Under the pieces are notes generated by a model, which made no database searches, was not told where the DNA came from, and saw only the letters and a program-made list of their open reading frames with translations. Positions 2,700 to 38,424 of a DNA stretch of 64,000 nt are shown in pieces (within the stretch, counting starts at the first letter, position 1; every line of letters begins with the position of its first letter). The DNA comes from Isoetes taiwanensis (lineage: Eukaryota > Streptophyta > Lycopodiopsida > Isoetales > Isoetaceae), in the NCBI GenBank assembly GCA_021234155.1, contig JAJEKV010000075.1, positions 3,279,280-3,343,279 on the forward strand. Reading direction: 5' to 3'. A program made the position numbers and the translations under genes.

Positions 2700-5060
2700 T
2701 CTACTACTTGTCATATTTGAGTTGAGCCCATTGTGTCTTCTAATGTTCTTCATTCTTGTACCTACAATCCTCCACTCTTGTATCCAAGTTTGAAGTTTGA
2801 TTTTTTATTTAACTGCTTTTGAATCTCCTTTTTGGTCAAGGAGAGCATTCTTCATGGACATTTTCTCACCACAAGCTTTTAATCTTGCATCCTTTTGATT
2901 CACTCTATCCTATTTGTTCATGCAAGGATGAAGCATTTGTCTTGCTATTCTTCTCGTTTGTTTGATTTTTGACCTCATTTGCCTCGACCTCTTCGTTCTC
3001 ATCTAAATTTTTTTTCCTAATCGTTTGGCAGTAGTTTTCTTCTTGTTAGGGATCTTGTGTATAGGAGCCCCTCATAAGAATGTGAATTGTCCTAGGATCG
3101 ACCTTCTAGTGACGGAGAGCATGCGATGCATGTATTGTGGTGCATGTATTGTGGATTGATAATCTCTCCATGTTATAGTGTCTTCCTCACTTTTGTTGCT
3201 AATTTGTTATGTCTAGGTAAATTGTTTTTCATTTACATGTTTCCAGCATCGACTACTTCTTATTCTTCTTTGGCCGTCCTTTGATGTTCTCCAATCCTCG
3301 AATCGCCATTATCGGATGGGAGCAACATGTATAAGATGCATGTAATTCGGACCCTCGAATTGCTAGGGGAGGCATATCTAACATGTGTTCTTCTCGTACC
3401 TTCATTCCTTTTATATATTTTTTCTGTTTCTTTTTATTTAGCCAAGCAAACTATCCTCGAATCAACATTCTGGTGATATACATACGATGCTTGTATTTCG
3501 GATCTCCAAGCAAGAGTGATCATCTTGCCATTTCCATAGTCTCTTGTGTTGCTAGTTTGTTATGTGCATGTGAATTGTTTTTTATTTACAACTCTTCAGC
3601 ATCGACTATTATCAATCGTTCTCCTATGATCTCCATTTCTCATTCTCGGAAGGAAGTAACATGTATAAGATGCATGCTATTTGGATCGTCAGGTCGCTAG
3701 AGGAGGCATTACGGCTACGAAAGCGATCTGGAACGTCAGTCCGAGATCCGACGACTCATGTTGTTTTGGGATATATCTTACAATTACGGCTATGAAAGTG
3801 ATCTGGAACGTCAATCCGAGATCCCAACTTTCTAATTCAAATATGCGAAATTTTTGTATTTGATGGGGACAAAAGCCCTACCCTCATCACCCTCACGAGG
3901 AGGAGTTGGAAAGAAACTCCTCAACTAAATGTCCAAACTTCCATTATTGATTATTTTTTTACCTTTTTATTGTTAAGTCTCTGGAATACTAATATAATCA
4001 AGACATTCTAGGGTGTCCTAACAAATTCTAGGTGCCCATGAGTAATTACTTAAGTCTAAATAAAAACTTTGGGCTCTAATCAAAATAGAACATTGTGGAA
4101 TACTCTAGATGCCCATGAGTAAGCACCTGTCATAAGTCTAAGGATTTTATAGTAGATGGATAATCTTAAACTGGAATACAACATCAAAAGATAGATTAAA
4201 ATATGAAATCCAACCCTTAAGGGCAAAGCTCACAACCGGGCTGAAAAAAAACTAAGTATTGGAAAAGAATTGGATTAAGATATGATTCAATTGAGCATTA
4301 GAGCATCCACTCTCGCAAGATCCCAAATTAAAATTAATTTGCATTACGGGGCATGGTCTAGTGGCAGGACCTTAAATCGCCACACCCAAGGTCACGGATT
4401 CAAACCTGGCCAATATTGGTCTAGTAATGGGGACCTTAAGAATCCATTGTCCCGAGGCCATGGATTCGAGTACGACCAACCGGTCTTGTGGTTGAGACCA
4501 TAAACTTGCCATATGTACTTGATAAACACATGCAAATCAGCTTCTAGCATATCACGCCCAGGTAGTGGTGGCTTCCATGTGACATGTAGAATAAAGTGAT
4601 GTAATTTGTATTTATGATATGATGATGAATAAAATGACGTCCTTCAATATAAAAAAAACTCCAAATTAAGAAGAAAGGAATAAGTTTAAAAAACTCCAAA
4701 TTAACAAGAAAGGAATAAGTTTAAGAACGGATTGGATAGGTATTGGGAAATTCACTAATAGAATTGATGGATGTCATTAGCCAATTCCACACAAAAAGTT
4801 TCTCCAAGCAAAAAAGAGTTAAGTTGGATCAAGGAACTCGTTGGCGGTTTCTGAATCTCCGAAGCCAATTCAGTCGAGGTCGCAGTTCGTCGAACCTTGT
4901 TGCTGAAGTTGATCGCTAGAGCACTGTTGAAGTCCCAATTCATGTTGTTCCTCTCCTTTATATTCGATGTAGTTCATCTTTTTGTAAACAATACGATAAC
5001 TGCTCTTTTTTATAAGGGTTCGTAGCTTTATAAAGATTAAAAGCCTGCCATTTAATAACT
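2700..5060 (+). repeat. Tandem unit A1, non-coding
   Basis: This stretch is about 70-90 percent alike by eye to 5925-8755. Shared landmarks are tacttgtcatatttgagttg at the left, the caccacaagcttttaatc segment, the cgatctggaacgtcag segment, the SINE, and ctttataaagatt at the right. No coding potential is recognised, and no terminal repeats of a known element class were found. The degraded copy-2 equivalent lies at about 20845-23080. Confidence 0.6.
4351..4505 (+). mobile_element. tRNA-derived SINE in unit A1
   Basis: A pol III internal promoter is visible: box A TGGTCTAGTGG (4354-4364) and box B GGATTCAAACC (4396-4406), about 42 bp apart start to start, as in a tRNA. A second box-B-like stretch, GGATTCGAGTACG, follows near 4463, so the element may be dimeric. 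No obvious A- or T-rich tail is present. Related copies lie at 8065, 22370 and 26045. It is present in both A units, so it was inserted before they were duplicated. Confidence 0.65.
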
Positions 5061-5400
5061 TAGATCTTTGCTATGCTAAACGTACATTTGATTAAAAATT
5101 CTTATTAACTTTAGTCTTTACCTTAGATTAACCAAAGGAATATTTTAACATGGATATTAGGGTGCGAGGTTTGGCATAAACATTCTATCCTTCTTTCTCT
5201 TTTCCTTGCTCCCATAGCAACTCCCCGGCACCAGCGTACCAATTCCTCCCCTTCCCTGGATTGATCCTCCTCGATCAAGGAATTTTATGATGAACCAAGT
5301 CTATGGTTACAACCTTGATCGAGTCCACAGTAAAAAATATTCAAGTCCAGCCCTTTAGGCTAAAAAAATTTAAGTCCAGCCCTTAAAGGCGAAAAAGTTT
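5050..5400 (+). repeat. Dispersed 350-bp repeat (partner at 15645-16005)
   Basis: Shares a run of landmarks with 15645-16005: tattttaacatgg, catictatc-type and ctttctcttttccttgctcc stretches, and agtccagcccttaaaggc. Counterparts in block 2 are at about 23080-23425 and 33230-33590. I found no terminal inverted repeats and no coding potential, so the class is unknown. Confidence 0.5.
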
Positions 5401-5449
5401 TTTAGCAGGATTGTCTAACCTCCCCACAACAAATCCTGCAATTCTAGCC

Positions 5450-5925
5450 TATCCACCTGCATATCACATCATGTCAAAAATGACGTAGCTTCATGTCTAC
5501 CATTGGATTTCATAATTTTGAATCCTATGGCTAGGACTATTAAAAAAAAAAATCCCAAGAATTCTCCTTTGCACCATGGATCCTCTCTAACTCCATTCTC
5601 CTTCCTCCTTTCTTTTCACATGTACTTAATAAACACATGCAAATCAGCTTCTAGCACATCGCGCCTAGGTAGTGGATTGGCTTTCATGTGACATATAGAA
5701 TAAAGTGATGTAATTTGTATTCATGATGTGACATTGAATAAAATGACATCCTTCAATATAAAAAAAAAACTCCAAATTAAAAAGAAAGGAATAAGTTTAA
5801 GAATGGCTTGGATAGGTATTGGGAAATTCACTAATAGAATTGATAGATGTCATTAGCCAATTCCACACAATCTCCAAGCATTATCACAGAGTAAGGAAAA
5901 GAGTTAAGCTGGATGAAGAAACTAC
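5450..5925 (+). repeat. Partial third copy of the A-unit right part
   Basis: From acacatgcaaatcagcttct (5633) to gagttaag near 5910 it matches 4530-4825 and 8265-8540, including the gaattgat...cattagccaattccacaca stretch. It precedes unit A2 and may mark the recombination point that made the tandem. Confidence 0.45.
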
Positions 5926-6514
5926 TTGTCATATTTGAGTTGAGCCTATTTATGTGATTCATTGGGTCTTCCAGTGTTCTTCATGCTTATACCTACAATT
6001 GTTTGCTCTTGTATCCAAGTTGGATCGTTTATTTAACTGTGCTCGAATCTCCTTTTTAGTGAAGGAGAGCATCCTTCAGGGACATTTTCTCACCACAAGC
6101 TTTTAATCCTGCATCCTTTTGATTCACTCTATCCTATTTTTCATGCAAGGACGAAGCATTTGTCTTGCTATTCTTCTCATGTGTTTGAATTTTTCACCTT
6201 ATTTGCCTCGACCTCTTCCTCCTCATTTTTCTTTTCTTTTTGAATTTTTTTTTTGGCCCTTTTCTAATTGTTTGGCGGTAGTTTTCTTGTTAGAAATCTT
6301 GTGTATAGGAGCTCCTCATAAGAATGTGAATTGTCTTAGGATCAACATTCTAGTGATGGAGGGCATGTGATGCATGTATTGTGGATTGATAATCTCTCCA
6401 TGTTATAGTCTCTTCCTCACGTTTGTTGCTAATTTGTTATGTTTGGGTAAATTGTTTTTCATTTACATGTTTTAGAAGCATAAATTTACCACTAGCATTA
6501 GCATTATCTTATCT

Positions 6515-6673
6515 TATTCTTGGTCGCCTTTTAATATTTGGTTATTGTGTTTGGTGATGGGGCCTAGTCTCCAGGTTTTAGATGGGCTGTTGCCCTTGCA
6601 TGTGCCGTCCCATAACCCGTTGGGTTCCCGTGGACGTAAAAATTCATCTTATCTTATCTTATCTTATTCTTCT
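6515..6673 (+). mobile_element. Short SINE-like insertion ending in (ATCTT)n
   Basis: The insert ends gggttcccgtggacgtaaaa followed by repeated atctt (6646-6670). That end resembles the LINE-A/B 3' end (GTCCCATAGG...GGTCTCCGTGGACG...AAAA plus a pentamer tail). Similar ttatcttatcttattctt stretches on both sides look like a target duplication. The equivalent place in unit A1 (about 3255) lacks it, so it inserted after the A duplication. Its degraded duplicate is at 24530-24680. Confidence 0.5.
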
Positions 6674-7194
6674 TTGGCCGTTCTTTGATGTTCTCCAATC
6701 CTCGCATCGCCATTATGGGAAGGAAGCAATATGTATAAGATGCATGCAATTCAGACCGTCGAATTGCTAGGGGACGCATATCTAACATATGTTCTTCTCG
6801 TACCTTCATTTCTTCTATATATTTTTCTGCCTCTTTTTATTTAGCCAAGCAAACTATCCTCAAATTTAGCCAAGCAAACTATCCTCGAATTAAAACTCTG
6901 GTGATGGGAAGTATACATACGATGATGTATTTTGAATCTCAAGCAAGAGTGATCATCTTGCCATTTCCATATTCTCTTACTTGTGTTGCTAGTTCTTTAT
7001 AGGCATGTGAATTGTTTTTTATTTAAAACTCTTCAGCATCGACTATTATCAATCGTTCTCCTATGATCTCCAATTCTCATTCTGAGAAGGGAGCAACATG
7101 TATAAGATGCATGCTATTTGGATTGTCAGGTCGCTAACGGAGGCATTACGGCTATGAAAGCGATCTGGAACGTCAGTACGAGATCCCACAACTC

Positions 7195-7545
7195 TTGTTG
7201 TTTCGGGATATATCTTACAATGCATATGACTTTAGGGACAATATGTAAGTGATCTTATCGTTGGTCCCAGATCATATGACTCACATTGCTTTAGATATAT
7301 TCTACAGTGCAGATGATCTAGGAGCTCATGTTGATTTGGGATATATCTTACAATGCATATGGTTTCGGGTCTATATGTAAGTGATCCTACGGTCCAGATT
7401 AATTTTGATCTTGATCATTGGTCCAAGGTCCTATGGCTTACAGTGCTTTAGATATATCTTACAGTGCAGATGGGATGGCCTGGGGTTTATACGTAAGCGA
7501 TTCTATGGTGCATATGGCCCATCATGTTCGTGATTTATTGGGGAT
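7195..7545 (+). repeat. Imperfect tandem array inside unit A2
   Basis: Phrases such as gggatatatcttacaatgca, tttagatatatcttacagtg and atatgtaagtgatc recur two to four times, giving units of roughly 150-170 bp. Unit A1 has only one such phrase at its equivalent place (about 3768), so the array expanded in A2. Block-2 equivalent: about 25210-25540. Confidence 0.55.
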
Positions 7546-8061
7546 CTCCCACTTTCTAATTCAAATATGCTAAATTTTTGTATTGAGGGGGACCAAAACC
7601 TTGCCCTCATCACCCTCACAAGAAGGAGTTGGGAGGAAACTCCTCAACTAAATGTCCAAACTTCCATTGTTATAATTTTTTACCTTTTTTATTGTTAAAG
7701 CTCTCTGGAATGCTAATATAATCAAGACATTCTAAGGTGTCCTAAAATGGTCTAGGCGCCTATGAGTAACTACTTAAGCCTAAACAAAAAGTTTGGGCTC
7801 TAATCGAAATAGAACATTGTGGAATACTCTAGATGCCCATGAGTAAGCACCTTTTATAAGTCTAAGGAATTTATAGATAGTTGGATAACCTCAAACTCGA
7901 ATACAGCATCAAAAGACAGATTAAAAAATGAAATCCACCCCTTAAGCGCAAAGCTCACAACTGGGCTGAGACTAAGTATTGGAAAAAAAAAGGATTAAGG
8001 CATGATTCAATTGAGCATTAGAGCTCTCCTCTAGCAAGATCCCAAATTAAAATTTGCCCTA

Positions 8062-8215
8062 TGGGCATGGTCTAGTGGCAGGACCTTAAATTGCCACACT
8101 CGAGGTCATGGGTTTAAACCTGACCAATATCGATCTAGTAATGGGGACCTTAAAGAATCCATTGCCCCGAGGTCACAGGTTCAAGTATGATTAACCGGTC
8201 TTGTAGTAGAGAGTT
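8062..8215 (+). mobile_element. tRNA-derived SINE in unit A2
   Basis: Paralogue of the element at 4351. Box A is TGGTCTAGTGG (8068-8078) and box B is the slightly decayed GGTTTAAACC (8111-8120). The second half again has a ggttcaagtatga box-B-like motif. It was co-duplicated with the surrounding unit. Confidence 0.6.
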
Positions 8216-9194
8216 AAGCTTCTCCGAGCATATTGCACCTTAAACTTGCCATATGTACTCGATAATCACATGTAAAGTAGCTCCTAACATATTGCGCCTA
8301 TGTAATGGACTGGCTTCTATGTGATATGTAGAATAAAAGTGACGTAAAATATACCTATGTAATGGAGTGGCTTCTATGTCATATTAGAATAAAAGTGACG
8401 TAAAATATACTCATGATGTGATGATAAATAGAATGACGTCCTTCAATATAAACCAAATTAAAAAGGAAGGAATAAGTTTAACGGCTTGGATAGGTATTGG
8501 GAAATTCACTAATAGATATCATAGAGTAAGGAAAAGAGTTAAGCGAGGTCTAGAGCACTGTTAGTGAAGTTCGTTCTGTTGTTGAAGTTGGTGGCTAGAG
8601 CACTATTACAGTCCCAATTCGTGTCTCCATCTGTCGATTGTTTCTCTCCTTTATATTCGATGTAGCTCACCTTTTAGTAAAAGGTTCGATAACCTCCTTT
8701 TTTTCTTATAAGGGTTCATAGCTTTATAAAGATTGAAGACTCACCTTTTCAATACATATATAAGGCAGTTTCCTTTTATGTTTGAAGGTAATATTTTTAC
8801 CCCAGGAAAAAGCGTGAGAACGACATGTGTCCCTAAAAATAATAACAGGAAATTTAAAAAAAAAAAAAAAGTGACGACCCCTTTCGTTCCTTTGCAAGCA
8901 ATCCGGTCCTGCTCAGTTACGAACCTTTCTTCCTCTGCAAGCAATCCGGGTTGCGTCAGCTTTCAAGCAAGCTCTTAAATTTCTTGCTCTGCAAGCAATC
9001 CCCAATCCCCTGCTCTACTCTATGCATTATGCCGTTTAAGCGGCCAGTTTCAGGCCCTTCACTTCTTCCTTCTTCTTCACTTTACTTCTCTTCACTTCTT
9101 CCTTCTTCTTCTGACGCCCCTTCTTTTTGTGACCGTGCACCTTCATTTTTCTAAGTAGTCTTTCTTGAAGGAAAAAAGGCATCGCCTCTCCCCT

Positions 9195-9745
9195 TTTTAT
9201 TTTCTTTTGTTTTGTTTTGTTGTGCAAAGTTTTTTCTTTTGTTTTGTGACCCAAGTGCACCTTCATTTTTTTCTAATTGGTAAATCATTTCAAAAAAAAC
9301 TCCTTGATTGAGCATTAGCCTAAAAGGCCATGAACAAGAATAATAAAATTGCTCCATCTTCTTTGCAGGGCTTTCTATATAGGAAAAGGTTATTGAAAAA
9401 ATTCTTTACTAGATTCTTCTCGAAGAAATTCCATCATCTTGAGATTTTGCCCTTCCATTCCAGGGGGTGCTCACCCCTTTTTCCCTATGATTTCATTGTG
9501 AACTTTAACATTGACATTACAATTCAACATGTGGATAGATATTTACATCACAATAATAAGTTTTAAAGCCTTGCAATTGTTCTAGGTCGGGCTTGCCCTC
9601 TTAAGAGTCTTATCAATAGGCTTATATGCTCGTATAATATCTGGTTTCCCAAACCCGAAAGTGCATTACCTATGAACTTAAAAAGCATAAAAGAGCATTT
9701 TTTTGCTTCAACTTAGGACAACACTATGTCAATAAATATGTCAAA
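9195..9745 (+). repeat. Direct repeat left of LINE-A
   Basis: Matches 14126-14790 over nearly its whole length (cttttgttttgttttgttg, gaacaagaataataaaattg, aactttaacattgacatta, atgctcgtataatatctggt, acactatgtcaataaatatg). This copy lacks several short internal pieces. LINE-A's tail abuts its right end. It may be one arm of a host duplication, an LTR-like pair or an unusually long target-site duplication. Confidence 0.7.
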
Positions 9746-12700
9746 GGAAGGAAGGAAGGAAGGAAGGTACTTTTATCGTCCACGGAGACCAATCGGTCTA
9801 TGGGACCCAATACAAAACGCAAAAGCGGATTCTTGCCGGATTAAAAACCCCGCCCGAAGGGGTTTTCGGGAAAACCGTGGCAAAGAATCAGCCTGTGACA
9901 AACCGTGCTAATCATATAAAATGCGTAAACATCCCAATATATACAAATCATGCACCACCCCCGTAGTGCCTAGTCACGGACAGCCGCGGGGGCAAATGTG
10001 ACTCGCAGTCCAAGACCTCTGGATGTATGACCCCCAGATTCACGTCTCGACGGTGTGTTCATCAGCAAATGCAAGGGCACGTCCCAGCCGCACTAAAGGA
10101 GCGTGATCGGCCCGGATCCGATCGAACACCGGGCAACTCTGGAAAGTGTGAGACTCATCCTCAATGGCACCCGTTTGGACAAAGACCGAGAGCACCCTGG
10201 CGGGGCTCCCCAATCCACCGCCTGCCTCGATCGCGAAGATGGTGGGCACTGTGCGAATGGAGGCAATGAGTCTGCGCTTTTTCGGGGGTACCGGGAACGC
10301 AGGTAGAGCCGTGGGCCCCGGGCTAACACGGGTTGATGTGCTCCTTGTAATGGGCCATTTTGACTCGCTTTAAAGCAATGGGGTCCCGAGCTTGCCAAGG
10401 AAACAAGCATCTAGGTACTCCCCGAAGCTATCACGATCGGCCAGCCGCGCCCGGTAGACGACATCGTTCTCACATCGTTCCATCTCATAAACCACATCGA
10501 TCTCTTACCCCCTCCAACAGGCCCTAAGCCACAATGGACTCATGGCCACAAGTAAGCCAGGTCGCGGGAGCCGAGCATCACCCATAGTAACCACTTTCTG
10601 AAAATAGACGATGTGTCTATCAAGGGCTGCCGGCCAAGCGGCAAGAATCCAGTTTCGCGCAGCGGGAATCGATAGGGGACTGAAGGTTTCACCCAAGTGC
10701 CCGTGCCAAAAATGCCTTACTCGCACTGCTCCAAGTCATTCCAGTCGCCAAAGAGACGGCATCGGCCCCCAAACCTCGACCCCGCATGAAGGACGGGCTC
10801 GACCGGTGCCCTAACAAATGTGACCGATGGCCCCAATCATATAGCTCACGCTCGGGTGATTTGTTGTTCTGCATGGCATAAATCGCTTTCCGGCCCACTT
10901 CACACCGCAGCGGATAGACGCCTCCCGCCAGAGCCGGAGGGGAACTCCACCCCTAGGTACTTGTAGGTGGGCGTGGCGCCCACAGTCCCCCCCGATATGT
11001 GAGTGCAGGAGGCATGGGGTGACGGAAGAGGATATGAGAACCACCTGGTCTTGGCCAGATTGACGCCAAGCATGTCGTAGCCCGACAAAATGTGTCTAGG
11101 GCATCCGTGTGAGACCAAGATAGTGTGGGCCAGCCAGCCAACATCGTCCCGCGATAGATGAGCTGGCCGGATGACCTGATGCAAAAAGCGTATGCCATCC
11201 CCCATGCTCGCAGAAGCGTGGCTCTAACCGATCAATGTAGAGGCCAAAAAGTGTTGGCGAGAGGGGGCAACCTCTTGGGACCCTATACTATCGGTGAATG
11301 CTTGGCCCGTCGGCCGATCCCCGCCAAAACAACTCTCATACAACACGTATATGGCATTCGCCGTGACGTGCAAATGGAGCCCCAGCTGACGCAGCTAGCC
11401 CACGCTTTTTCCCTTGGATCCGACAAAAGCCTTTGGCGAAGTCCACAAAGCAAACAATACAAGTCCGTAGATGATTCCGGGCCGCTTTCAATCGCTGCCC
11501 GCAAATGTAAAGATATGGTCAATCGTTGAGTGGCGGGGTCGAAAAGCCCGCCTGTGTGAGGGCTCGCGATCCGGCCACCTCCCAGTAGTCAACATTACCG
11601 CCGCCGAGAATGCCGATAGCGGTTTGGCAAATAATGAACCGACCATGATCGTCCCACTTGGCCGGACAAAGGTGGGGTCGCCTCGCCTTGTGAATGGGAA
11701 CAACCCCGCTTGGGTCCATTGTCGGGGAAACCCTCCTCGCAATGCTCGTTGAACAGGGTAGTGAGGACCGCACAAGGCCGCCTCTGCCCACTTGAGTAAC
11801 TCGCCTCCATACCATCGGGTCACCGCCTTCCCATTAGCTAGCCGCTCTGTGCCCTCCTCAACATCCTCGCCCACGAACCAATGGGGGCCATCCCGTGGGG
11901 GTATGGGCGACGCTGCCCCTGGCGGGTCATAGAGCTGCCGCAGTAATCGCTCCCACCGCCCGGGTGTGATGTCCCCTCAGAGGGCGGGCTGGCCTTCAAG
12001 CACTTCAAGGCCAAAAGGTTCGAGGATGAGTGTCCAACAGCCGAACATCTCCCACGATAAAAGCAGGCAAGGTACCGCCTTTGTGTCCCTTCGGATGGGC
12101 GCGGTATGGTGGTGGCCCGCAAGCGGTACTGGATCCGCATCGATTTGAGTGCCGCCGGCTCTGCTTACAACCGCATCAAACCATCGGTTACGCGGGAATG
12201 TTGCTGACCCCTTCGAAGCGCGACGGGGGTCCGCCAGCACTCGGCCCGCCGTGATCCCGTATTAGCCCGAAAGTCACCGGGTCTGTCACCGCTTCTAGTG
12301 TGGAGGTCTCGCAATTACCGGAGGGCGCCCATGAGCATCTGGCGAAGTCCTCTACCGCCATAATCGAAGTCTCAACCGAGGACGGTGGAGAGGGGTCGGC
12401 ATAGTGGGGGTTCCACGCGGCCGCCAAACCAGGTCCAAATAAAGTGGGAGGTGATCTCGAGTCGATCTCCTCATCCCGATCGCCTGGCTCACCCTAAAAC
12501 GAATCGATGAGATGCATATCTTTGGCGCAACTACAAGCACATAGTCCACCACACTAGACCCTCCCCGATTGTCCCGCTCGCATGTGCACTTTATGGTGAA
12601 TCGCCACCGTGAAAGGCCATTGCAAATTATCAAGTCAAAAATGCCACATAGCAGAGCAACCGTCGCCAAAGCGAAAGTGACTGGGGCCGGCATCCGACCC

Positions 12701-14122
12701 GCGCGGCCAAGGCTACTGGGCGGGCGAAGCCGCAGACATCGCCGTGCCGAGGGGTCAAGTCGCATGGGCTGCTCTACTCCCGTCCCGCAGCATTGAAATC
12801 TCCAAGAAGGACGACCCTACCCAACCGCCGATGCCGCCAGATGTCATCATATAGATCGACATACGGGTCCATCCTATCCGCGACGGGTGGCAGCGATAGA
12901 AGGTGCCGTCAGCGTGAGGGAAATAACAGCGCTTAAAAAGAGGGTTGCCACCGGTATTATGCACACGAACCCGGGCACCGTTATGTATGTCCGCCTTCCG
13001 GAGGATAACCGAATGTGCCAAGGTTGTCCGTAGTAGCAAGCCACTCCCCATGACCCCGCCGGCCTGCATAAGTATTGAAGACCGAGAAATGTTGGTAACC
13101 CGCAAATCGTAGCCTCAGGGCTCAAAGATGCTCCCATGTCTCCATGAGGAAGATGAGATCCATACCGGGCCGCCACGGAAGTTCGACCGGCCCCCTTCGC
13201 CAAGGGAAGCCTCGACAATTCCATGAGACCACCCGGAGGCACAATTCCTATTTGTCGCCAGGGATGGTATGCGCAGCCGAAGCTAAGGGAGGGAGGGCGG
13301 AAGCGAGGGCCGAAAGTGAGAAGTAGATGGAGCGGAGGCAAAGATGTGGTCGAGAGGGCGGGGCCGCGAGGGAGCGGGGAGTAGGAGCAGGAGAAGGGGG
13401 GCCGTGGGTAGTAGAAGCGTATGCGTGGCCGCTGCGCAACCGGTTGGGGCCGCGGGGTCCGCAGCAGATAGCGTGTCGGCCGGAAAATGTGCATCCCGCC
13501 AACCAATCCCTGCGGCACTCGCTGGCGGTAATGCCTCGACCCCCCGACAAGCTCCCCGCCTCGCGGCCTCCCGCTGCACGGGTGTGAGGTCCCGGCCCAC
13601 GCATGTGGATGTCCCTTCAACATCCGCCCCCGGCGCAATATGGCATCACGCACTGCATCCGCAACCGCGAATATGACAATGCGGTCACGCCCGGGGCGCC
13701 GAGCCCCCATGCCGGGCCGCTGAGAAATGTGAACTGCCTCGGAATGTCATCCGACGAGAATGTGTGTTCGGATGTGGTGGGCGAGACTCTCCCCGCTGTT
13801 TCGCATGCCTCGAACTACCAGATTGTGGCCTCTCCGCCAAGGCCTCGAGTTCTCATGGGCTCAAGGGTCCAAGGTGGGCGGTAAGGCCGGGTCCCCGTGG
13901 CCGGGGTGGTGGTGGTGGCCGGGATGGCGGGGAGGACTGGAGTGTGGCCGGGATGGCGGGAGTGGGCGGGAGAGCTGGGCAAAGAAGGGGGGGCGGGCCG
14001 CCGGTGTGGAGGCTATGGCGGGATAGCAGTTTGAGCCGCGTTCTCGGCCCTGTGAAGTCGGGAGGACAGCTCTTGCAGAGCCTGCTGCTGCTTGGCCATC
14101 TCCTGCCTGCACTACTGCATTT
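9746..14122 (-). mobile_element. LINE-A: GC-rich non-L1 LINE with AP endonuclease and reverse transcriptase, decayed
   Basis: A non-LTR retrotransposon read on the minus strand, about 4.4 kb and far richer in G+C than its surroundings. Visible from 5' to 3': an ORF1-like region (about 13250-14100); endonuclease start SWNCRGFPWRRG (about 13200-13225) and DLIFLMETWEH (about 13129-13160); endonuclease core DLYDDIW...RVVLLGDFNA (about 12789-12860); reverse transcriptase pieces GDPT, IMVGSLFAK and STIDHIFTF (about 11510-11700); a broken YADD where DDV survives (about 11145-11160); PTYKYLGVEF (about 10938-10970); and a C-terminal EDESHTF..CPVFDRIRADH motif (about 10100-10165). Frames change repeatedly, so it cannot make an intact protein. 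The 3' end is a conserved module followed by (CCTT)5, seen as ggaa repeats at 9746-9767. The reverse transcriptase signature differs from the plant L1 in this window. I do not know the clade name with certainty. Confidence 0.8.
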
Positions 14123-14125
14123 TTT

Positions 14126-16587: not shown

Positions 16588-16610
16588 AAGTTAGACATTC
16601 CTATAGACAG

Positions 16611-24529: not shown

Positions 24530-24680
24530 GTGGCCCTTTTAATTGGGTTGTGTGTGTTTGGTATGATGGGGCCTAGTCTCCGGGTTTTAGATGGGGAACA
24601 TTTATGCCCTTGATCCCTTAACCCCCGTTGGGTTCCATGGGCCAGTAAAAATTCATCTTATCTTATCTTATCTTTATTCT
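24530..24680 (+). mobile_element. SINE-like insertion with (ATCTT)n tail, block-2 copy
   Basis: Counterpart of 6515-6673. It ends gggttccatgggccagtaaa and an atctt run. The internal part is shortened and altered. Confidence 0.4.
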
Positions 24681-26044: not shown

Positions 26045-26200
26045 CCTATGGGCATGGTCTAGTGGCGGGACCTTAAATTGCACACTGGTGGTCATGGGTT
26101 TTGAAACCTGACCAATATCGATCTAATGGGGACCTAACTATCGCCCACATAGGGTCCTGGGGTTCAAGTATGATTAACTGCCTTGTAGAAGAGAGAGTTA
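26045..26200 (+). mobile_element. SINE, degraded copy in block 2
   Basis: Counterpart of 8062-8215. The box A region gcatggtctagtggcgggac is kept, while box B (gggttttgaaacctg) is altered by small insertions. Confidence 0.5.
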
Positions 26201-27299: not shown

Positions 27300-30200
27300 G
27301 GAAGGAAGGAAGGAATTATCTACTTTGCTCGTCCGCGAGGAGACCATTGTCGGTCCTATTGGACCAATTTCTACTTTGCAAAATCATAGATTCAAATTCT
27401 TGCGGGATTAAAACCCCATGAACAAGGGTTTGAAGGAAAATCCGTCGGTAACAATCGAAAGCCAAAGCTTAGGTTGCCCGCGTGCTAATCATATAAAATG
27501 CGGCTTATCCCAATCTTTATACTCGATCAATTCCATCACCCGTGATTTTGTCTTCACGGTCCAAGTTCACAACCCTTTTTTCCCATGATATCAGGAACCT
27601 TTAACATTGACATTACACCAAACATCACAGATGTTTTTGACACAATAATAAGTTTAAGCCTAGTCGGCCGGTGTTGTTCTAGGTCAAACAAAATGCAAGA
27701 GACGTATCGTAGGGTTATATGCTAAGGGGCGTTTCAAAACCCGGTGTGCCCGAACAAAAGCATAAAAAAATTTTTTTAAAGTGTGAAACTCATCCTCAAT
27801 AGCACCGGTTTGGCGGCCAGAGCTGTCTGGCGAGGGCTCTATTTTGCAGATCACCGATGCGGTGGTGCCGGGCACTGTCTGAATGGAGGCAATGAGTGCG
27901 CTTTCGAGGGGGCAGTGGGGAGCCTTGAGTGGTACGTGGGCCGGGGCTAACCGCGAGGTTGATGTGCTCCATGGGCCATTTTGACTGCTTTAAAGCAATA
28001 CGAGAGCGCGCCGAAACAGCATCTGGGCCACTCCGCGGGCTATCACCGCGATCGACATTTGCGCCCGGTATGCGCATCGTGCTCACGCACTTTCCCGTAT
28101 CTGGCGAACCAGCGTCTCTCTTGCCTCCAGCGGGCCCTAAAGCGCATTGCCGGACTCATGGCCCGCGGTGTAAGCCCGGTCGCGGGGCGAGCATCTGGTA
28201 ACCACTTTTACGAAAATGAGCTGATGTGTCTATCAGGGGGCTGCCCCAGGCGGCAAAGAATCCCGTTTTCGCCAGCGAGGAATCGATAGGGGACTGAAGG
28301 TTTTACCCAAGTGCGCGTGCCAAAATGCCTTGCACTTTTGCTCCGGAAGTCATTCGAATTAGCCCCGAAGAGGCCGGCCAAGACTAACCGATGCGTCTGA
28401 AGGACGAACTCGACCCAGGTGCACGGAACAAAATGTGGTGATGGCTTCAATCTTATAGCTACTGGTATTTGTTACGCCTCATCAGCACCGACCTGCTTGT
28501 CACCCATAGCCGGGATGGGGCCTCCGTGAAGGCGAGGGGAGGGGCTTTCCACCCTAATTGCCCAGCCAGGTGGTGGCGTCCTGAGGGCATCCCCGTGTCT
28601 GCCGAGGAGGCATGGGAGATTGTGATGAAGAAGGGATATGAGAGTCCCTACGGTCTTGGCAGTTAATGGCACATGCTCTGGCAGCGACAAAATGTGTCCT
28701 AGAACATCCAGGAGTGAGGCTACGCTTCACGGGGTGTGGGCCCGGCCGGTGTATCGTCGCATAGATGAAGCTGGCGGGATGACCTGATACCACAAAGGCT
28801 GTATGCCATCCCCATGCTTTCGATGGCAGCGAAATTAGCGATCCGCAAAAAGGGTGGTGGCGAGGCAACTACTGGCGGACCGATACTGCGGTAACTGGCC
28901 CGTGCGAGAACATCACGCCAAAACAACTCTCGCTACAACCTGTACATATGGCATTACCACGCACGGAAGAGGCAGCGAGGGAGCCAGATTGGCCGCGGTC
29001 GCCGAAGCTTTCCCAGGGGACCATTATCCCATGCCCCTAAAGTCCCTGGCATTCTTCGATCGGCCAAGGTGATTGCATGCCGGTAAGTGCCTTGGCGTAA
29101 AGATATGGTCTCGTTGGTGGCGGTTGGCTTCCCCCACATTGAGGGCTGTATCCACAGCTACCCTGCTTGACCTTGCAGTCCAAGCTGCCACTCGAGAATG
29201 CCGATAGCGGTTTGGCAAATCACCGGAAGCGGTATGATGCGGTGGGTAATTGTGGGACGGTGTGGTAAGCCCTTGTGAATGGGAACAACCGCGTGGTCCG
29301 GCTGACCAGGAGGCGCCCTCTGCAATGCTGGTAGAGCAGGGGTGGTGAGGCCGGCACAAGCGGTACGCCCGCCCGCCAGGCAACTTCCGGCCTCACCACC
29401 CGCCAGGGTCAGCCTTCGCCTTCCAGCTGGCCACGTTGCGGTACTCCTCCCAGCATCTGTCCACGAGAGTCAATGGGGAACCCATCTGTGGGTATGAAGG
29501 CGTCTGTGGCGTCTGCAAGCGGGTCATAAATTTTAGCGCAAAGTCTTACGTTTCCCTTGCAGGGTGCGATCATCCCGCCTTGGTGGGCTGGCCAGCGAAA
29601 CACTCTGTAAAAGGTTGAGGAAGTGGAATTCAGGCCGAACTATCTCCCACTGATGCGCAGCGAATGCAAAAGCAGCGTACGTCGCTGCGAATGTAGGCGT
29701 ATGCGGTATTCGATACCTGGCGGTGCACGGATCGAATAATGTGTGACGGGCTGCCCGCTTCGTTCGCTGCGGTCGCGTCAAAATAACCATGGATTCTGGC
29801 GGAGGAATGTTAGCGACCGGCGGCAGCGAGTGCCTTGTAACACTGTCCATTTGCATCCCGCGTAATAGCGGTCGGTGGTGCTGTCTGGCGCTTGCTCTAC
29901 AATGTGGAGGAGTGCAGTGGGAGGGGCGTCCATGAGCATCTCGGCGTAGTCGGCTTTGCTTTCATAATCGAGTTTCTCAGCGAGGGGCGGTGAGGGGCTG
30001 GCATAGTGGGGGATTCTGGCGGCTGCTTGGCCAGTCCAAATAAAGTGGGAGGTGATGCAGTGCGATCTCTCCTCATCCCGTGTCTGTGCCCACAGGAAGC
30101 TTGTTGATGAGAGATTACATATCTTAGCATGGCTACAAGCACACCAGTCCACCACACTGGACCCTCCCCTGATTGTCCTGGCATGTGCGCCCCAGAATCG

Positions 30201-31690
30201 AGACAGCCAGCGCGTGAAGGCCATTGCAAATTATCAAGTCAAAAATGCCACATAGCGAGAACAGCTATGCCAGCGGTGACACAGGCTGTCATCCGACCAG
30301 CGTGGCGGGCTATACCAGGGAGGCGTGAAGTGCGGGACATCGTCGGCCGAGGTCAAGTCGCATGGGCTGCTCCTACTCCTGTCCGTGCATTGAAATCTCC
30401 AAGAAGGGACTGACCCTACCCAGCTAGCGATCTTTGTATGTCATCATATAGATCGACATCACGGGTCCATCCCTATCCGCTTGCTCGGGGTGGCTGCGAT
30501 AGAAGGTCTTTGTCTGCGTGAAATAAATATGACGAGAAAAAAAGGGGTTACCCTTTGGTATTATGCACCACGAACCCAGTACGGTTATGTCTTCTGTCTT
30601 GGAGGATATAGCAAGATGTGCCAAGGTTGTCCGTGTGAAAACCTCCCCCATGACCCATTTATCTGTACAAGTATTGAAAATAGAAATGTTGGTAACACAA
30701 ATCGTCGAATTGCCTGTGCCAGTATGCTCCCATGTCTCCATGAGGAAGATGAGATCCATAAACGCCCACGGGTTCCAGGCTGTCCCCTACGCCAAGGGAA
30801 GCCTCGACAATTCCATGAGACCACCTGGGAGGCACAATTCCTATTTGTCGGCCGGGGATGGTATCAAACTTCGGTTTGAGGAAGAACCGAAACCGAATGA
30901 GTCAAAAGAGATGGAAAACCAGGAGAAACCCGGCTTATCATCATTGAAAGCCATGAAAGAGAACAAAGGGTAAAGGCAAGGAAAGAACCGGTGAAGTAAA
31001 AATGCGAAAGCGAGGCCACGTCCTGAAAGTGACCAATGAGGACGGTTAAAATTTCTTCACCGGTATCGGGCATCCCGCGGAACAAGCCTGAGCACCCCGT
31101 TGGCCGAATGCCTGCGACCCGACGAAGCTCCACATGCTGGCGTTGCCTCCTGTTGCCCGCGTTGTGAGGTCCCGCGTCTACGGGGATGTCCCCCTTCAAC
31201 ATACGGCCACGGCGCAATATGGCATCACGCGCATTGCATGCATAGTGAATATGACAATGAAAATGCGGTCTGCGACCCGGTGAGCCCCATCTTGGGAGCT
31301 GCTTTCCCGAGAAATGTGAACTGGCCCGGGAATGTCATCCGGTCGAGAATGTGTGTTGGATGTGGTGGGCGGGGCTCTCCCCTATTTGATTACGGCATGC
31401 CTCGAACTACCCAGTTGGCCTCTCCGCTGCGCTCCACAGGTGCGGCTGCGGGTCAAAGTGGTAGGCGGGGTCTGGCATCTTTGGGGTGGTGGTGGCTGGG
31501 ATGGCGTGGAGTGGTAGGTGTGGGCGGGATGGCGCGGTGGCTGGAGTGTTTGGCGGAGCGGGCTTGGTGCCGATTATGGAGCTATGGGCGGGATAGCGGT
31601 TTGAGCAGCGTTCTGGCCTGTGAAGTCGGGAGGAGACAGCTCTTCACAATTGCTTTGCTGTTGTATCCATCTCACCTTTGCACTACTTGC
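27300..31690 (-). mobile_element. LINE-A, block-2 copy, heavily degraded
   Basis: Collinear with 9746-14122 on the minus strand. Recognisable are endonuclease SWNCRGFPW and MDLIFLMETWEHTG (about 30720-30815), FNA-type residues near 30385, AGFRP-region fragments near 29050-29350 and the IEDEFHT motif near 27795. The 3' end (27300-27780) is blended with flank sequence, and 30865-31085 has no counterpart in copy 1. Confidence 0.65.
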
Positions 31691-34539
31691 ATTTTTTATT
31701 TTATTTTCTTTTGTTTTTTTTTTTTGTTGTGCAAAGTTTTTTACTGCGGTCTCTTTTTTGCTGCCTCTTATTATCTATTTCACAGGCTGAAGGTACAAGA
31801 AGGTCATTCTCTTTCCACATTTGCCTTGTACTTCTTTCTGCTTTGGTAAAATCATAGATTCAAAAAAACTCCTTGTTTTGATGCATTAGCCTAAAGGCCA
31901 TGAACAAGAATAATAAAATTGCTCCATCTTCTTTGCAGCATGAAGTGGAAGCTAAAGCGCTTTTTCTAGGGGCTATTCTATATAGGAAAAACATTAAGAT
32001 TATTGAAAAAATTCTTTACTAGATTCTTCTCGAAGAAATTCCATCATCTTTGAGATTTTGCCCTTACATCCATAGGGGGTTGCTCACCTTTTTTTTCCTA
32101 TGATTTCATTGTGAACTTTAACATTGACATTACAATTCAACATGTGGATAGATATTTACATCCTGGCTAATAAGTTTTTAAGCCTAGCTTTGAAGCTTGC
32201 AATTGTTCTAGGTCGGGGCTTGCCCTCTTAAGAGTCTTATCAATAGGCTTATATGCTCGTATAATATCTGGTTTCCCCAAACCGAAAGTGCATTACCTAT
32301 GAACTTAAAAGCATAAAAAGAGCATTTTTATTCAACTTAGGACAACACTATGTCAATAAATATGTCAATAAATACATTTTGAAAGACACAATGCAAACAA
32401 CCAAAATATTGGCAATCCTACAAGGCATTGTTTGGTAATCATATGAAACAAATAAATTTATTTCATAATAACAATTGGTTGCAACCAATTCCAATACAAA
32501 CTCTATTCTTCAAGCTCTATTACAACTCTCCTTCCATCTAGATACAAGTTTCAAGAGGGCAAACCACTCTGACACCACTGTTTCTTTGTCGAGAGATTAA
32601 AAAGAACAGGTTTGAGGGAATCATATTTGAAAAACAAAAGCAAAGGAGAATAAATGCAAACTATTCTACTAGCAAAACATCATAAGTGACGTAACCCCAA
32701 AAAGTAAAAATGCTTGAAAACAATAGGAAGATTAATCAATTAAGTCACGTAATTAACCCCCAAAAAATATAAAAATGCTTGAAAACAATAGGGAAGAATA
32801 CCGGGCAATAGCGATAATAGATCGATCAAATGTCTTGGCATTCCGCCAAGAGCAAATATTTTTTGTAGCGTGAATCTTGTGTTACATTTGTGGTGGTGTT
32901 TGAGATGGTTTCCATTAATTCCATTCTTACATATTCCCCGTAGAATATTCCATTACGTACTTAAACATTGAAATTAGTCACAATTATTGTTATAGGAAAT
33001 AAAACAATCTCGGAGAACATATGTTACATGATCAATAAGCTTCTTTGGCCCTTGTTTTGGCCGATTCCCACGTGTTACACGACTTTCGTTAAGCCACTTT
33101 GTTTCCAAAGCCGAGACTCTAGCCCTCTTTCACATTGTTTAAGACTTAACACAAATTCCCCATAATTAATTTGAAAGGAGAAATGTTCAAGGTGCCTTGC
33201 CTGCTATGATAAATTTCTTGTAATAACTTAAATCTTTGCTAATAGTATACGTATATTTGTTTAAAGATCCTTATTAATTTTAGTCTTTACATTAGATTAA
33301 CCAGAGGAATATTTTAACATGGGTATCAAGGTCAGAGGTCTGGCATAGACATTCTATCATTCTTTCTCTTTTCCTTGCTCCCATAGGCACGCCCCCGAGC
33401 ACCACCATATTCCCTTCCTGGGATTGATCGTCCTCAATCAAGGAAATATATGATAAATTAACATAATTAAGTCCAATGGTTACACCCCAACCCCGAGTGA
33501 GTCCACAATAAAAAATATTTAAGTCTGGTCCTTTAGGCTAAAAAATTTCAAGTCCAGCCCTTAAAGGCTAAAAAGTTTTGAAGCAATTTGAGGCTATCCA
33601 CGTTGCAGCCATCTAGGATTTAGGGAGCTTAAGAATCGCTGGATTTCATCTAGGATGAGAAAAATTCATCGAAATTCCAAAGATGTTCATCGTAACAGGA
33701 AGTTATGCCTGTTAGGGAGAATTAGCGATCAAACTGATTTTTGTAGAAACACAAATCAAATTGGTTTTGTTCTATTGGTAGTAGCGGTTCTATTTTAGTG
33801 CATTCAAATGCACAAAATTATCTTTACTGAAAACTTGCGGAATCAACAAGAAACTGATGAAAATGGCCAAAAGATACCTAAAAACTTCAAAATCTTGGAA
33901 CTTGCCAAAAATAATGGCCCCGGATCAAAATCACAAGGAACCTTACCCGTCCGGCGCCATTGGCGCTCGACCGCGATCGGTAACACCTCTTCTTCCGCGG
34001 CGAGACGAGGGTAAGAAAGAAAGAGAGAATGAAAAAAGGGAAATAGGGGATTTTTTGGGCCAATACCAAGATGACACATAAAGCGTCATCCACGAACAAG
34101 AATGTCAAGTGGCCTTTGGTGAGCGCAAGTAACGGCGTCACTTTGTTGACATCCTAAGAATGTCAAGTAAGTTAGACATTCCCTATGAGGCGAGAAATGC
34201 CCCTAAAAAAGCGAGGGGCATTTTTCACTAACTTGCCAAAAAATAATGGAATTTTACAATTTGCCCTTTAAAATATAACCAACTAGACCATGGATTGTCA
34301 TAACACTGAGCGATCATGGCCTTTAATAATGACAAAGAAATTTATATTAAAACCCTACAAAAAGAAGTTTTGTGTGAAGTCGAATAGTTCTCAATTCTAG
34401 ACATATTGTTACACACACCAAATAACTTTAGAGTGTCTTATTGATGCGCTTCGCTTATAGAGCAAAAAAAAAAAAGAAGTCTTGCTTGTAACTAAGAGTT
34501 TTGGAGAGTACAACAAAAAAAAGAAAACTCACCTCCAAA

Positions 34540-37500
34540 ACCAAGTCCAAAACTTTTACCTCAATCACTTTGATTCCCTAAAATTGGGGTGTCCAATAAA
34601 CATAGGAGATTGAGGCCAATCTCCTTGACAAATACCACTTATAAGGTATTAGCCAAGATCCCGCCAATAGATTAAAGGCTTGCCTTATAAATGTTATAAA
34701 TCCATGTCGGTGCCGCTTTCCTCCCCAAAGACATATTCTTGACAATTACATTGGGGCTCTTTGAAGGGCTACATTGGAATAAGTCATGTCCAAGCAAGAA
34801 TGTCTATTGCTCAAGTTGGGATTTCAAGAGAGCATATGATACTATCGGTTAAGTTCTTGGAGAAAGCTATGGCCCACCTAGGATTATCCGAAAAAGGTGT
34901 ATCAAAAAGTCTTTGGATTCAATTCAACAAAGAACCTCGGCTTTATTGTCAATGGTGCAACTCTTGACAAAATTCCGGTGCAGGAGAGGGTAAGGCAAGG
35001 TTGTCCTTTAGCCCTTACCTTTTTCGATTCTTTGCCGAGAAATGCTCACAAAATTAGTACTACAAATGCAAGACAAAGGAGACATTCAATCACTGCAACT
35101 ACCAAAAGGGGAAGGTACCTTTTCCATAATGCAATATGCTGATGATACCTTTGTTTTTTTTTGAAGGAAGGAGAAAGTCTCCAAAAATTTCTTGCAGCAA
35201 TGGAAAGGTTTGGCGATGCGGTTTTACGGAGTTTGCTTGAACAAAAATAAAAGTGCTATAATATTGGATTCTGAGGAGAAAACCATGCAAGGGATTAAAG
35301 TGTTAAGTAAAGATGCAGGTACTGTCATATAAGGTATCCCTTTGTCACTAAACTCTACATTGGTTTGGGTGCATATTCACACGGGGGGTGACTCCAGGCA
35401 ACGAGAGCTGTTGGATAGGCATATTCACCCCTTATTCCTTAATCTACAGCGTACGTATAGTTCCTCATTTGTGGGGTATGCAAGTACAAAATTTGCTATA
35501 CTGTATAACAAGATTCGCAAAATACTATAAGATTTCAAGCGGAATACTATATGGTGTTGATTTCGTACATGCAAAATACAATTATGAGGGCTCTGTACGC
35601 CCTCACGTCACTTCGTGAATATGCACCCAAATCAAAGGGGGATTTAATTTAAATGTTTGGACCCAATGGTTGTGTTAATTAATGTCAATGGTAGTTATGT
35701 GTTGGTTGTCAATGTCAATGGTTGTTATGTGTTGGTTGTTATGTGTTGGGGATTTAATTTTTTATATGTTGGATATTAATGGTTTGTGTTGCAAAAAAAA
35801 AAATCTTTGGCCCCTTCCGGGCCTTAGGACGCCACCCGGGTGTGACAAAAAATTAGAATTTAGAAAAAAAACTAGAATTCATTTGAGGCTTTCATCACAC
35901 ACGTAGCTTTTTGAATTTGATCACAATAAAACAAATAGAACATAAGTAAAAGTTACCATAAAGATGAAGCAAGATTGATCCCATTATTACAGAAAGTCAT
36001 AAAGTTTGCAACACCCATACACAAACATTTTCAAGCTGGAATTCAAGAGCGACCTTTGGCCTCCATGGATTCTTGTGGTGAGAAACAAAAGTGGGAAACT
36101 TTTACGAAAGTTAGCACAAGGATCTAGAAGCCTTGAATTTGCTTAATAACCTTGCCTCAAAATCTAAAAATGCATGGTAATTTTTACAAAGCTTCATTCG
36201 GAATGAGCCATAAAACAATATCCAATAAGCGCAATCCTATATTAATCACCGGTAGGATGTGAAAGCCTACCAAACCGCCGAAAAATTATTGTTTTAGAGT
36301 AGATAACTTAACCAAACATATACATATCATACACTATCAAAAGATCTCAAAGAGAAACTTTCCAACATATAAAAAACATCTTAAACAAAAGCTACGGATC
36401 AAAAGTTATGATAAGAAATGTGTGTTCCGTGGGAACGCACTACATCTCTCGCCCTTCAAACCCTTCATGTGCCCATTATGCACCACACACACACAAAAGG
36501 GCTTTTGTTGTGAGCCATTGATTGTTGACCATTGGAAAAAAAAAAAGGCTAAAATCAATGGCCCTTCATGTGCCATTATACATCCTGCAAAAAGAAGGGC
36601 TTTGTTGTGAACCATTGGTTGTTGACCATTGAAAAAAGGCTAAAATCAATGGCTGAAATTATGCACTCTAGATGTGCGCGATTAGTACATCCATTTGAAT
36701 ACATACATCCGAAATCATAGGAAAACCTTGGTGAAAAGCATACAAGAACACAAAGAAAACCCCCCGTTATTATGCTACATATTGAAAGGCCTTTTGGGAT
36801 CAATTGTGACTAGGATCAAAAAGAAGTTGGGATCATATTCCTCCTCTCTGTCCTTGGCGGGTAGAATTCAAATAGCAAATGCTGTTATAGGAAGCACTCA
36901 TGTATATTTCTCCTACTCGTAATAGGGGGATAAAAGCATCATATGGTAAGATTGAAAACGTTATCAGAAAATTTCATTTGGCAGGGGTCCATAAAGTTGC
37001 ATGGAATGATCGACTAAGTCCAAGAAAGAAGGTGGGATGGGATGCAAAGATTTATTTCTACAGGCCAAGCTTCGGCTGCTAAGATGATTTGGAAGCCATC
37101 TGAGAATAATTCCCATCCCGGTAAAACGTGGTTAGGATGCTTGGGTATTAGGAGTCTTACCCCATGGCGGCCATAGTCTCAAGCATCAATTACACGATTA
37201 CGCATTCTTCCAATTTAATCCTTGTCCAAATACTTCCTCCATCCTTAGAAGAATGTTCGGGGCTTGGAATATGGCCTCTCTTTTTGCTATAAGCCTCCAA
37301 TTGTTGACACCAAAGCCAAAGAGATAAATTTCTTTTGGCATCCGTATTGTTGATAGTGAAACTAATTATCTCGCACTTATGCATCCCCGAAGTACATACA
37401 ATGGAATCAGGCGGATTGAGGACAGATTGGAGATCTTTGGGATGAAAACACATGGCTGGAAACCATGGGAAGTAATAGTAAGAGTTGACCAAAGGATCAA

Positions 37501-38424
37501 ATCTAGACAAATTGATATACAATACAAGTTGATGGAAAAATTAGACATGTGGACGAAGATTAGCTAGTACCACCAATCAGTAACATTTAAAAGGTAAAGA
37601 AATATGCTAGAGTAAAGTCCGATCTACAAAGCTTTAATCAGTCACAAGCCTTCCAAGGCAACTCTACTTTGGAATTGTGAAGAAGAGACATTGAAGCGGT
37701 TGTATGCAAAAGGGATGGAAAAGCTACAATGCAAACAAGATCAAAACTTTTCGGTGGCTGATTTTACACCAAGGGCTAACAACAAACTACAAAAAGACAT
37801 AAATGGATCCTAATATACGGATTATTTGTCCATTGGGTTGTGGTGAAATAAAAACATCCAACCATGTGTTCCAATGTCCCTTGGATTATGGAATTAAAGG
37901 CTGGTCAGCTGTGTTAATAAAGGGAACAATTGGAGGTCGAGGGTCTTATAGAGTTTCCTCAACACGCATAACGGGATTTTTTTATGTACAACAAGGTCAC
38001 TAGGCTCTTCGGTCAATTTTGGAAACACCGAGGAACGGGGTGGCTATGGAAAACAAGAATCCCAACATTATATGGCTAAAACAAACATTTTTCACAATTA
38101 GCAAACACAAATTGGCACATAAGTCCTTGAAGGAAAAAATTATGATTAGGATGGAATGCCTTTGGTAGATTTGAGGGGGTAACTATGATTTCTTTGTTCT
38201 TAATCTAATGATGATGATGACATGTTACCTGATGCCATGAGGAGGCCCCGATGGGGGCCCGGCGGGAGGATAGGAAGTATGGCGGAGACTTCAGGATAAT
38301 GGCGAGGACACAAATGGGCCGAGGAGTGAAGAAAGGGGACCTCTTCATTCAGCTAAAAGCAGGAAGTCATACATCACGACTGCTCTAAAAGGATTCTTAA
38401 GAGGTGAACATGGAACACAATAAC
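34540..38424 (+). mobile_element. 5'-truncated L1 LINE, block-2 copy
   Basis: Counterpart of 16955-20833 with the same T-run frameshift after YADDTFVF (35150-35160) and the same nested insertion. Many extra indels break the frames, including within LDFKRAYDTIS and the zinc-binding region (PLGCGEIKTSNHVFQCPL near 37830-37880). The sharing of the nested insertion shows that both copies descend from one already-interrupted element. Confidence 0.75.
35360..35635. mobile_element. MITE, block-2 copy
   Basis: Counterpart of 17767-18046. The left terminal repeat is intact (ttggtttgggtgcatattca). In the right one the C-rich run is shortened (gtcacttcgtgaatatgcac). Confidence 0.65.

What the first reader, a model, noticed from the sequence alone, without database searches (positions are those of the whole stretch)
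2842..38424. An 18-kb block is present twice in tandem, and the second copy is systematically damaged
20834-38424 follows 2842-20833 element by element, including the same nested MITE-in-L1 and LINE-A with its flanking repeats. Natural decay would hit both copies alike and evenly. Here copy 2 carries most of the indels, in patches, next to stretches of about 500 bp that are virtually identical (33170-33680 against 15590-16098). That points to a false duplication or an unpolished consensus, or to a very recent true duplication with bad base quality. Gene-copy and repeat statistics taken from this assembly would be distorted.
Basis: partly seen in the sequence, partly recalled or inferred. Interest (0 to 1): 0.75.

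Follow-up and report, generated by a model that had tools for sequence, protein, structure and literature searches.

The report
Likely false duplication from raw reads
A doubled 18-kb stretch of a plant genome is most likely a genome-assembly mistake: the second copy looks like uncorrected nanopore read sequence of the same place, so it should not be read as biology.

Summary
The pair is really in the sequence (2842-20833 against 20834-38425), and the damage sits in copy 2. Three polarity tests agree: an internal four-unit repeat (private substitutions 403 in copy 2, 84 in copy 1), 11 other genomic copies of a nested segment, and 3 copies of the LINE 3' part (copy 1: 1-2 gap openings; copy 2: 83-91). 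With read-like scoring, substitutions, insertions and deletions are about equally common, as in raw nanopore reads. In clean contexts 48 old repeat differences are kept in both copies and none is private to copy 1. The damage passes 38425 and runs to at least 42.7 kb; the sequence is clean again by 48.5 kb. So a noisy tract of 22-27.5 kb starts at the junction, and its first 17.6 kb repeats the end of the clean sequence. Assembly size points to Isoetes taiwanensis v1: nanopore/miniasm, Bionano scaffolding, two rounds of read-based gap filling, short-read polishing between them. Best reading: a false tandem duplication from an unmerged overlap or over-extended gap fill. A real, very recent duplication filled with raw read sequence is not excluded without reads.

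The parts
2842..20833 (.). Copy 1: clean sequence; ends inside a LINE
   Evidence: indel counts like those of other genomic copies in the LINE parts tested; for the repeat units
20834..38425 (.). Copy 2: same sequence with raw-read-like noise; its LINE runs on past 38425
20826..20837 (.). Junction copy 1 | copy 2
   Evidence: of 40 matches listed for 20584-21083 (40 of 475 candidates scored) only the window itself extends more than 24 bases past the junction
20834..48363 (.). Noisy tract, outer limit: copy 2 plus flank; shown to 42748, inconclusive in the GC-rich insertion 42749-48363, clean by about 48500
33168..33675 (+). Error-free island in copy 2 (matches 15590-16098)
2703..5920 (+). Unit U1 of an older 3.3-kb tandem repeat in copy 1
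5921..9110 (+). Unit U2 of that repeat; both recur in copy 2 at 20837-23920 and 23924-27089
27160..27780 (.). Copy-2 stretch with copy-1 blocks in changed order; possible stitch of two reads (inference)
   Evidence: read by eye
16985..20833 (+). LINE in copy 1 (RVT_1, zf-RVT), cut off at 20833; start approximate
34572..38787 (+). Same LINE in copy 2, continuous across 38425 to about 38787; start approximate
17767..19192 (+). 1.4-kb element nested in the LINE; absent from the sister locus on C1060

Best explanation
Copy 2 is not a decayed genomic duplicate but uncorrected, patchily polished nanopore read sequence (shown as far as sequence alone can show it). The duplication is most probably false (inferred): a polished contig ends at 20833; a raw read, or two stitched reads, anchored on the contig to the right was inserted to fill a scaffold gap, or formed an unpolished contig tip. 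Its left 17.6 kb covers ground already present at the end of the left contig, and the overlap was not merged. Short-read polishing then corrected only scattered islands.
For: Polarity: four-unit repeat, 2297 ungapped columns, private substitutions U1 46, U2 38, U1' 202, U2' 201; private indel events 43 in copy 1, 139 in copy 2 (binomial P 5e-51 and 5e-13). Nested segment against 11 loci: copy 1 32 substitutions/3 insertions/3 deletions, copy 2 119/10/13, the 11 loci 16-39/0-3/0-4. LINE 3' part against 3 loci: copy 1 1-2 gap openings, copy 2 with its continuation to 38787 83-91. C1060:7.17 Mb paralog as outgroup: copy 1 70 mismatches/6 gap openings, copy 2 86/28. Error make-up: 195 mismatches, 204 insertions, 182 deletions in the last 7.3 kb. 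Same underlying sequence: with 5 clean flanking columns on each side, 241 sites, 48 keep the U1/U2 difference in both copies, 0 are private to copy 1, 2 to copy 2, 2 others. Tract: copy 1 is clean to 20832, noise starts with copy 2 and passes 38425. The sister locus C1060:2.066-2.075 Mb carries the right part of the block once and runs on into the 38.4-kb flank; the adjacent 9.5 kb (L035) has no match to the window at E 1e-10. Pipeline: miniasm, racon, pilon, Bionano, then two LR_Gapcloser rounds with pilon between. LR_Gapcloser can insert from the nearest tag to the end of a read and its fills were about 88% identical to truth in a benchmark. Bionano scaffolding leaves overlaps unmerged, and short reads then tend to polish one copy only.
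Against: No reads, depth or optical map were seen. A real tandem duplication would also break a contig at 20833 and could be filled with raw sequence. In the nested segment, 57 columns set copy 1 apart from the family; copy 2 shares 27, shows the family state at 23 and a third state at 7; 13 of the 23 lie in one cluster beside poly-C (18232-18249) and 7 at one gap-placement site, but the cluster may be a real difference or a copy-1 error. With only 3 clean flanking columns, 4 of 546 sites are private to copy 1. The middle third is worse (64% matching columns) than one-sided read noise explains and has changed block order. The C1060 sister locus is itself noisy in its LINE part. No 13-N gap remains.
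Confidence: 0.8

Rival explanations
1. A real, very recent tandem duplication. The assembler broke at the end of the first copy, and the second copy plus part of the flank were filled with raw read sequence, so the noise is technical but the duplication is real.
For: Underlying sequences are nearly identical, which fits a very young duplication. Contig ends are expected at repeat boundaries (general knowledge). LR_Gapcloser's one-read mode requires tag distances to agree within 20% with the scaffold.
Against: The sister locus C1060:2.066-2.075 Mb has the right part of the block once. The noise continues at least 4.3 kb past the duplicated part, which this reading does not require. The left breakpoint lies inside the 3.3-kb unit and the right one inside the LINE, with no longer repeat seen at both (by eye).
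Confidence: 0.17
2. A real older duplication whose second copy mutated faster (for example mutagenic repair synthesis at duplication).
For: A strong excess of private changes in copy 2.
Against: The excess is also there in the unduplicated 38.4-42.7 kb flank; with read-like scoring insertions and deletions are each about as common as substitutions; exact islands up to 505 bp remain; copy 1 shows no private changes in the strict clean contexts.
Confidence: 0.02
3. A sub-form of the best explanation, counted inside its 0.8: the overlap joins two different haplotypes, the left contig from one and the noisy tract from the other.
For: BiSCoT's authors say such duplications usually correspond to allelic duplications. 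The sister locus on C1060 is identical in places (50501-51000: no difference) yet lacks two insertions, as alleles can. One cluster at 18232-18249 differs between the copies.
Against: Strict clean contexts show no allele-like differences on the copy-1 side.
Confidence: 0.25

Closest known systems
Unmerged contig overlap in Bionano hybrid scaffolds (described with BiSCoT, PMC7649008; passages seen)
   Same: End of one contig repeated head to tail at the start of the next; short reads tend to leave one copy unpolished
   Different: No run of Ns remains here, and the noise goes on at least 4.3 kb beyond the overlap; so it works like this but is not filed as a proven member
Raw-read gap fill by LR_Gapcloser (PMC6324547, section 8 and passages seen; benchmark PMC8848313, passages seen)
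   Same: Used in two rounds in this assembly; takes raw reads and in some modes inserts up to the read end; 87.7-88.3% identity in the Arabidopsis, hummingbird and human figures that I saw
   Different: The passages that I saw do not describe tandem duplications as a result; DENTIST's text says some gaps may be 'overfilled', without naming this case
False duplications in genome assemblies (PMC9516828; search listing with start of abstract only)
   Same: Same general class
   Different: Those were platypus, zebra finch and hummingbird assemblies; this is a plant and carries raw-read-like noise

Membership tests
Unmerged-overlap (Bionano-type) false duplication | Head-to-tail order: the end of the left part matches the right end of the copy; the start of the copy matches inside the left part | tested here: met
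Unmerged-overlap (Bionano-type) false duplication | Underlying sequence the same in both copies | tested here: met
   0 copy-1-private sites of 241 strict sites, 4 of 546 with a looser filter; exception cluster
Unmerged-overlap (Bionano-type) false duplication | 13-N gap between the copies | tested here: not met
   no N in the window. The later gap filling could have removed it, but this exact form is not claimed
Raw-read gap fill | Error make-up and rate of raw reads, with a sharp start | tested here: met
Raw-read gap fill | Pipeline step that inserts read sequence after consensus polishing | tested here: met
   (methods passage); that raw rather than corrected reads were given is inferred
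Raw-read gap fill | An actual scaffold gap at this place before filling | not testable with these tools
   intermediate assembly not available
True tandem segmental duplication | Reads spanning the junction and double depth | not testable with these tools
   no reads available
True tandem segmental duplication | Post-duplication mutations on both copies | tested here: not met
   strict filter; a very recent duplication would also lack them

The most novel reading that the evidence does not exclude
The duplication is real and so young that the copies had not diverged: an 18-kb copy-number change next to an eIF3D gene copy in Isoetes, hidden behind raw-read noise.
Probability: 0.17. Interest if true: 0.25.

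Novelty: not a real feature. Interest (0 to 1): 0.2.

Why it matters
Counts of genes, tandem duplicates, pseudogenes and repeat ages taken from this assembly could be biased by such tracts. Copy 1 has three LINE frames of 150 aa or more, copy 2 has none, so copy 2 looks like an old, decayed duplicate when it is probably the same DNA. The paper reports low-Ks syntenic gene pairs on separate scaffolds as possible recent segmental duplications; some could be retained haplotypes or unpolished overlaps, which this locus and its C1060 sister make worth checking.

Tried and rejected
Rejected: natural decay alone, and a mutation burst in copy 2 only (noise continues into single-copy flank).

Corrected on the way: my first self-comparison used blastn's default megablast scoring, which inflates gap counts; I repeated it with blastn scoring and with read-like scoring. 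The GC-rich middle looked at first like ribosomal DNA to me; Rfam found nothing at gathering thresholds, and an open frame of the second GC-rich element (46794-47078) is a reverse transcriptase. Aligner choice changes the substitution:indel ratio, so I relied on comparisons made with one aligner and with controls. A first run of the family test took only 5 of 11 family members because of strand; it was repeated with all 11.

Led nowhere: two other near-identical pairs, C1082 (offset 19.4 kb) and C1051 (offset 20.3 kb), have indel-heavy differences, but I could not show a head-to-tail structure (no match above 200 bits of the fetched C1082:4331000-4357000 pieces to 4366000-4371500; the fetched C1051 pieces match for 4.0 kb, plus 193 bases elsewhere), so they are not counted as further cases. 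Relatives of the GC-rich elements are indel-rich themselves, so noise inside 42749-48363 stays inconclusive.

Full report
Where it is. The window is G000:C1084:3279280-3343279 of an assembly of 1,658,258,908 bases in 1110 contigs. The Isoetes taiwanensis v1 paper (PMC8566536; I saw passages, not the whole text) gives 1658.30 Mb, 204 scaffolds and 909 unplaced contigs. I infer that this is that assembly; 1113 against 1110 pieces is a small mismatch that I cannot explain. Nearby genes are an eIF3D (PF05091, 622-2154) and HSP90 exons (PF00183, 49.6-51.1 kb, minus strand).

The observation. The pair is real in the letters: 2848-9110 against 20837-27089 and 13491-20826 against 31070-38425. In the middle third only 3066 of 4809 columns match, and near 27.2-27.8 kb I read copy-1 blocks in the order 9262-9313, 9750-9940, 9428-9700, 10145 onward (by eye). 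No N occurs in the window.

Which copy is damaged. Copy 1 contains an older 3.3-kb tandem repeat, so four units can be compared. Of 2297 ungapped columns, 1358 are constant, 302 separate U1+U1' from U2+U2' (differences older than the duplication), 34 group U1+U2, 4 group U1+U2', 112 are multi-state; private substitutions are 46 (U1), 38 (U2), 202 (U1') and 201 (U2'). Private indel events are 43 in copy 1 and 139 in copy 2; binomial tests give 5e-51 and 5e-13. The nested segment 17867-19148 against 11 other loci gives 32/3/3 private substitutions/insertions/deletions for copy 1, 119/10/13 for copy 2, and 16-39/0-3/0-4 for the 11 loci; one search listed 58 matches and cut out 12, one of them the window itself. 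The LINE 3' part against 3 loci gives 113-136 mismatches with 1-2 gap openings for copy 1 (19191-20832), and 223-251 with 83-91 for copy 2 with its continuation (36782-38787). The paralog at C1060:7.17 Mb agrees: 70 mismatches and 6 gap openings for 14866-15692, 86 and 28 for its copy-2 counterpart; 42 and 7 against 44 and 15 for the neighbouring part, which contains the clean island.

What the damage looks like. With read-like scoring the last 7.3 kb has 195 mismatches, 204 insertions and 182 deletions, mostly 1-2 bp; the first 6.3 kb has 301, 255 and 235. C>T plus G>A make up 37 of 119 private substitutions of copy 2 in the nested segment, 15 of 32 in copy 1. Exact islands of 505, 176, 155, 154 and 138 bp occur in the last 7.3 kb, where evenly spread differences would give a longest run of about 65 bp; in the first 6.3 kb the longest is 60 where about 40 is expected.

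Same underlying sequence. Requiring 5 clean columns on each side leaves 241 sites: 189 constant, 48 with the old U1/U2 difference kept in both copies, none private to U1 or U2, one each private to U1' and U2', 1 multi-state, 1 grouping U1+U2. With 3 clean columns, 546 sites: 426 constant, 98 kept, 4 private to copy 1, 13 private to copy 2, 4 multi-state, 1 grouping U1+U2. In the nested segment, of 57 columns where copy 1 departs from the family, copy 2 shares 27 (18 of them substitutions), shows the family state at 23 and a third state at 7. Of the 23, 13 lie at 18232-18249 beside a poly-C run, 7 at one deletion whose placement is ambiguous, and 3 elsewhere. I cannot say whether the poly-C cluster is a true difference or an error in copy 1.

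Where the noise begins and ends. Copy 1 is clean up to 20832 in the LINE comparison. After 38425 the sequence continues as the LINE 3' end found in many genomic copies, with 40-47 mismatches and 21-23 gap openings in about 390 columns for 38426-38787. In 39842-41980 the window has 179/37/13 private substitutions/insertions/deletions, the C1060 copy 18/4/1, L030 14/5/3 and L031 3/1/4. Differences from the C1060 copy stay dense to 42748; 48364-48500 has 3 mismatches and 5 gaps, 48501-49024 has 1 mismatch and 2 gaps. In the GC-rich insertion 42749-48363 the window has more private changes than either of two relatives in 12 of 14 bins, but those relatives are closer to each other than to the window and indel-rich, so this part is inconclusive. 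The noisy tract is thus 20834 to at least 42.7 kb and at most about 48.5 kb, that is 22 to 27.5 kb, and only its first 17.6 kb is duplicated.

The sister locus. C1060:2,066,000-2,075,000 matches 10197-20826 and continues into the 38.4-42.7 kb and 48.4-49.0 kb parts; the segment 14850-17450 has one match there, besides two matches in C1084 and partial ones at C1060:7.17-7.18 Mb (41 matches listed). The next 9.5 kb (L035) has no match to the window at E 1e-10. It lacks the nested 1.4-kb element and the 5.6-kb GC-rich insertion. It is itself noisy in the LINE part: 61 gap openings against copy 1 at 19762-20826, where copy 1 has 1-2 against three other copies. Further right, 50501-51000 is identical and 51001-52000 differs by 57 mismatches and 30 gaps. 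Whether it is an allele or a recent segmental duplicate is open. Of the 40 matches listed for the junction stretch 20584-21083 (40 of 475 candidates scored), only the window itself extends more than 24 bases past the junction.

Mechanism. The methods passage says: ONT reads assembled with minimap2/miniasm, polished by racon and pilon, scaffolded with Bionano, gap-filled by two LR_Gapcloser rounds with a pilon polishing in between, then purge_haplotigs. That passage mentions no polishing after the second round. [quoted passage not shown] DENTIST's benchmark puts its fills at 87.7-88.3% identity in the Arabidopsis, hummingbird and human figures that I saw (passages; PacBio reads, simulated or real). 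BiSCoT's authors state that the Bionano tool leaves overlaps unmerged and that short reads then tend to align to one copy only (passages). The left contig ends inside a LINE, where tags would be non-unique; that this is why the left side was not anchored is my inference. Which of the two routes, over-extended fill or unmerged raw contig tip, made this tract is not shown. I lean to the fill, because the noise extends into the unduplicated part.

In print? One search for 'Isoetes taiwanensis' with 'false duplication' gave no paper in the held library; a broader one listed 8 of 650 papers, none of which holds the species name.

Verdict. An assembly artefact of a known general kind, well supported for the noise (about 0.97) and likely for the false duplication (about 0.8).

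Noticed in passing
C1082:4331513-4341756 and 4350833-4361184 (L019-L021, L015): A second near-identical pair, offset 19.4 kb, carrying eIF3D twice; against window 396-2379 and L014 the L019 copy has 10 private indels, the L015 copy none. Not shown to be head to tail.
   Followed up: partly
C1051:2833582-2837601 and 2853910-2857908 (L042, L043): A 4.0-kb pair at 20.3-kb offset, 97.7% identical, with 44 mismatches and 27 gap openings.
   Followed up: partly
C1060:2.056-2.075 Mb against the right part of the window: Collinear sister locus, identical in stretches; could be a retained haplotype. The paper treats low-Ks syntenic pairs as possible recent segmental duplications.
   Followed up: partly
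504-782 and 607-2154: eIF3D is split over two frames in the window, while the C1060 and C1082 (L015) copies keep one frame; the window has private indels in that part.
   Followed up: partly
9.9-13.8 kb (minus) and 42749-48363 (plus): Two GC-rich LINE-like elements whose genomic relatives differ with many indels (about 0.5-0.75 gap openings per mismatch); poor polishing or real decay is open.
   Followed up: partly
9195-9744 and 14133-14795: About 550-bp direct repeat flanking the GC-rich element in copy 1.
   Followed up: no
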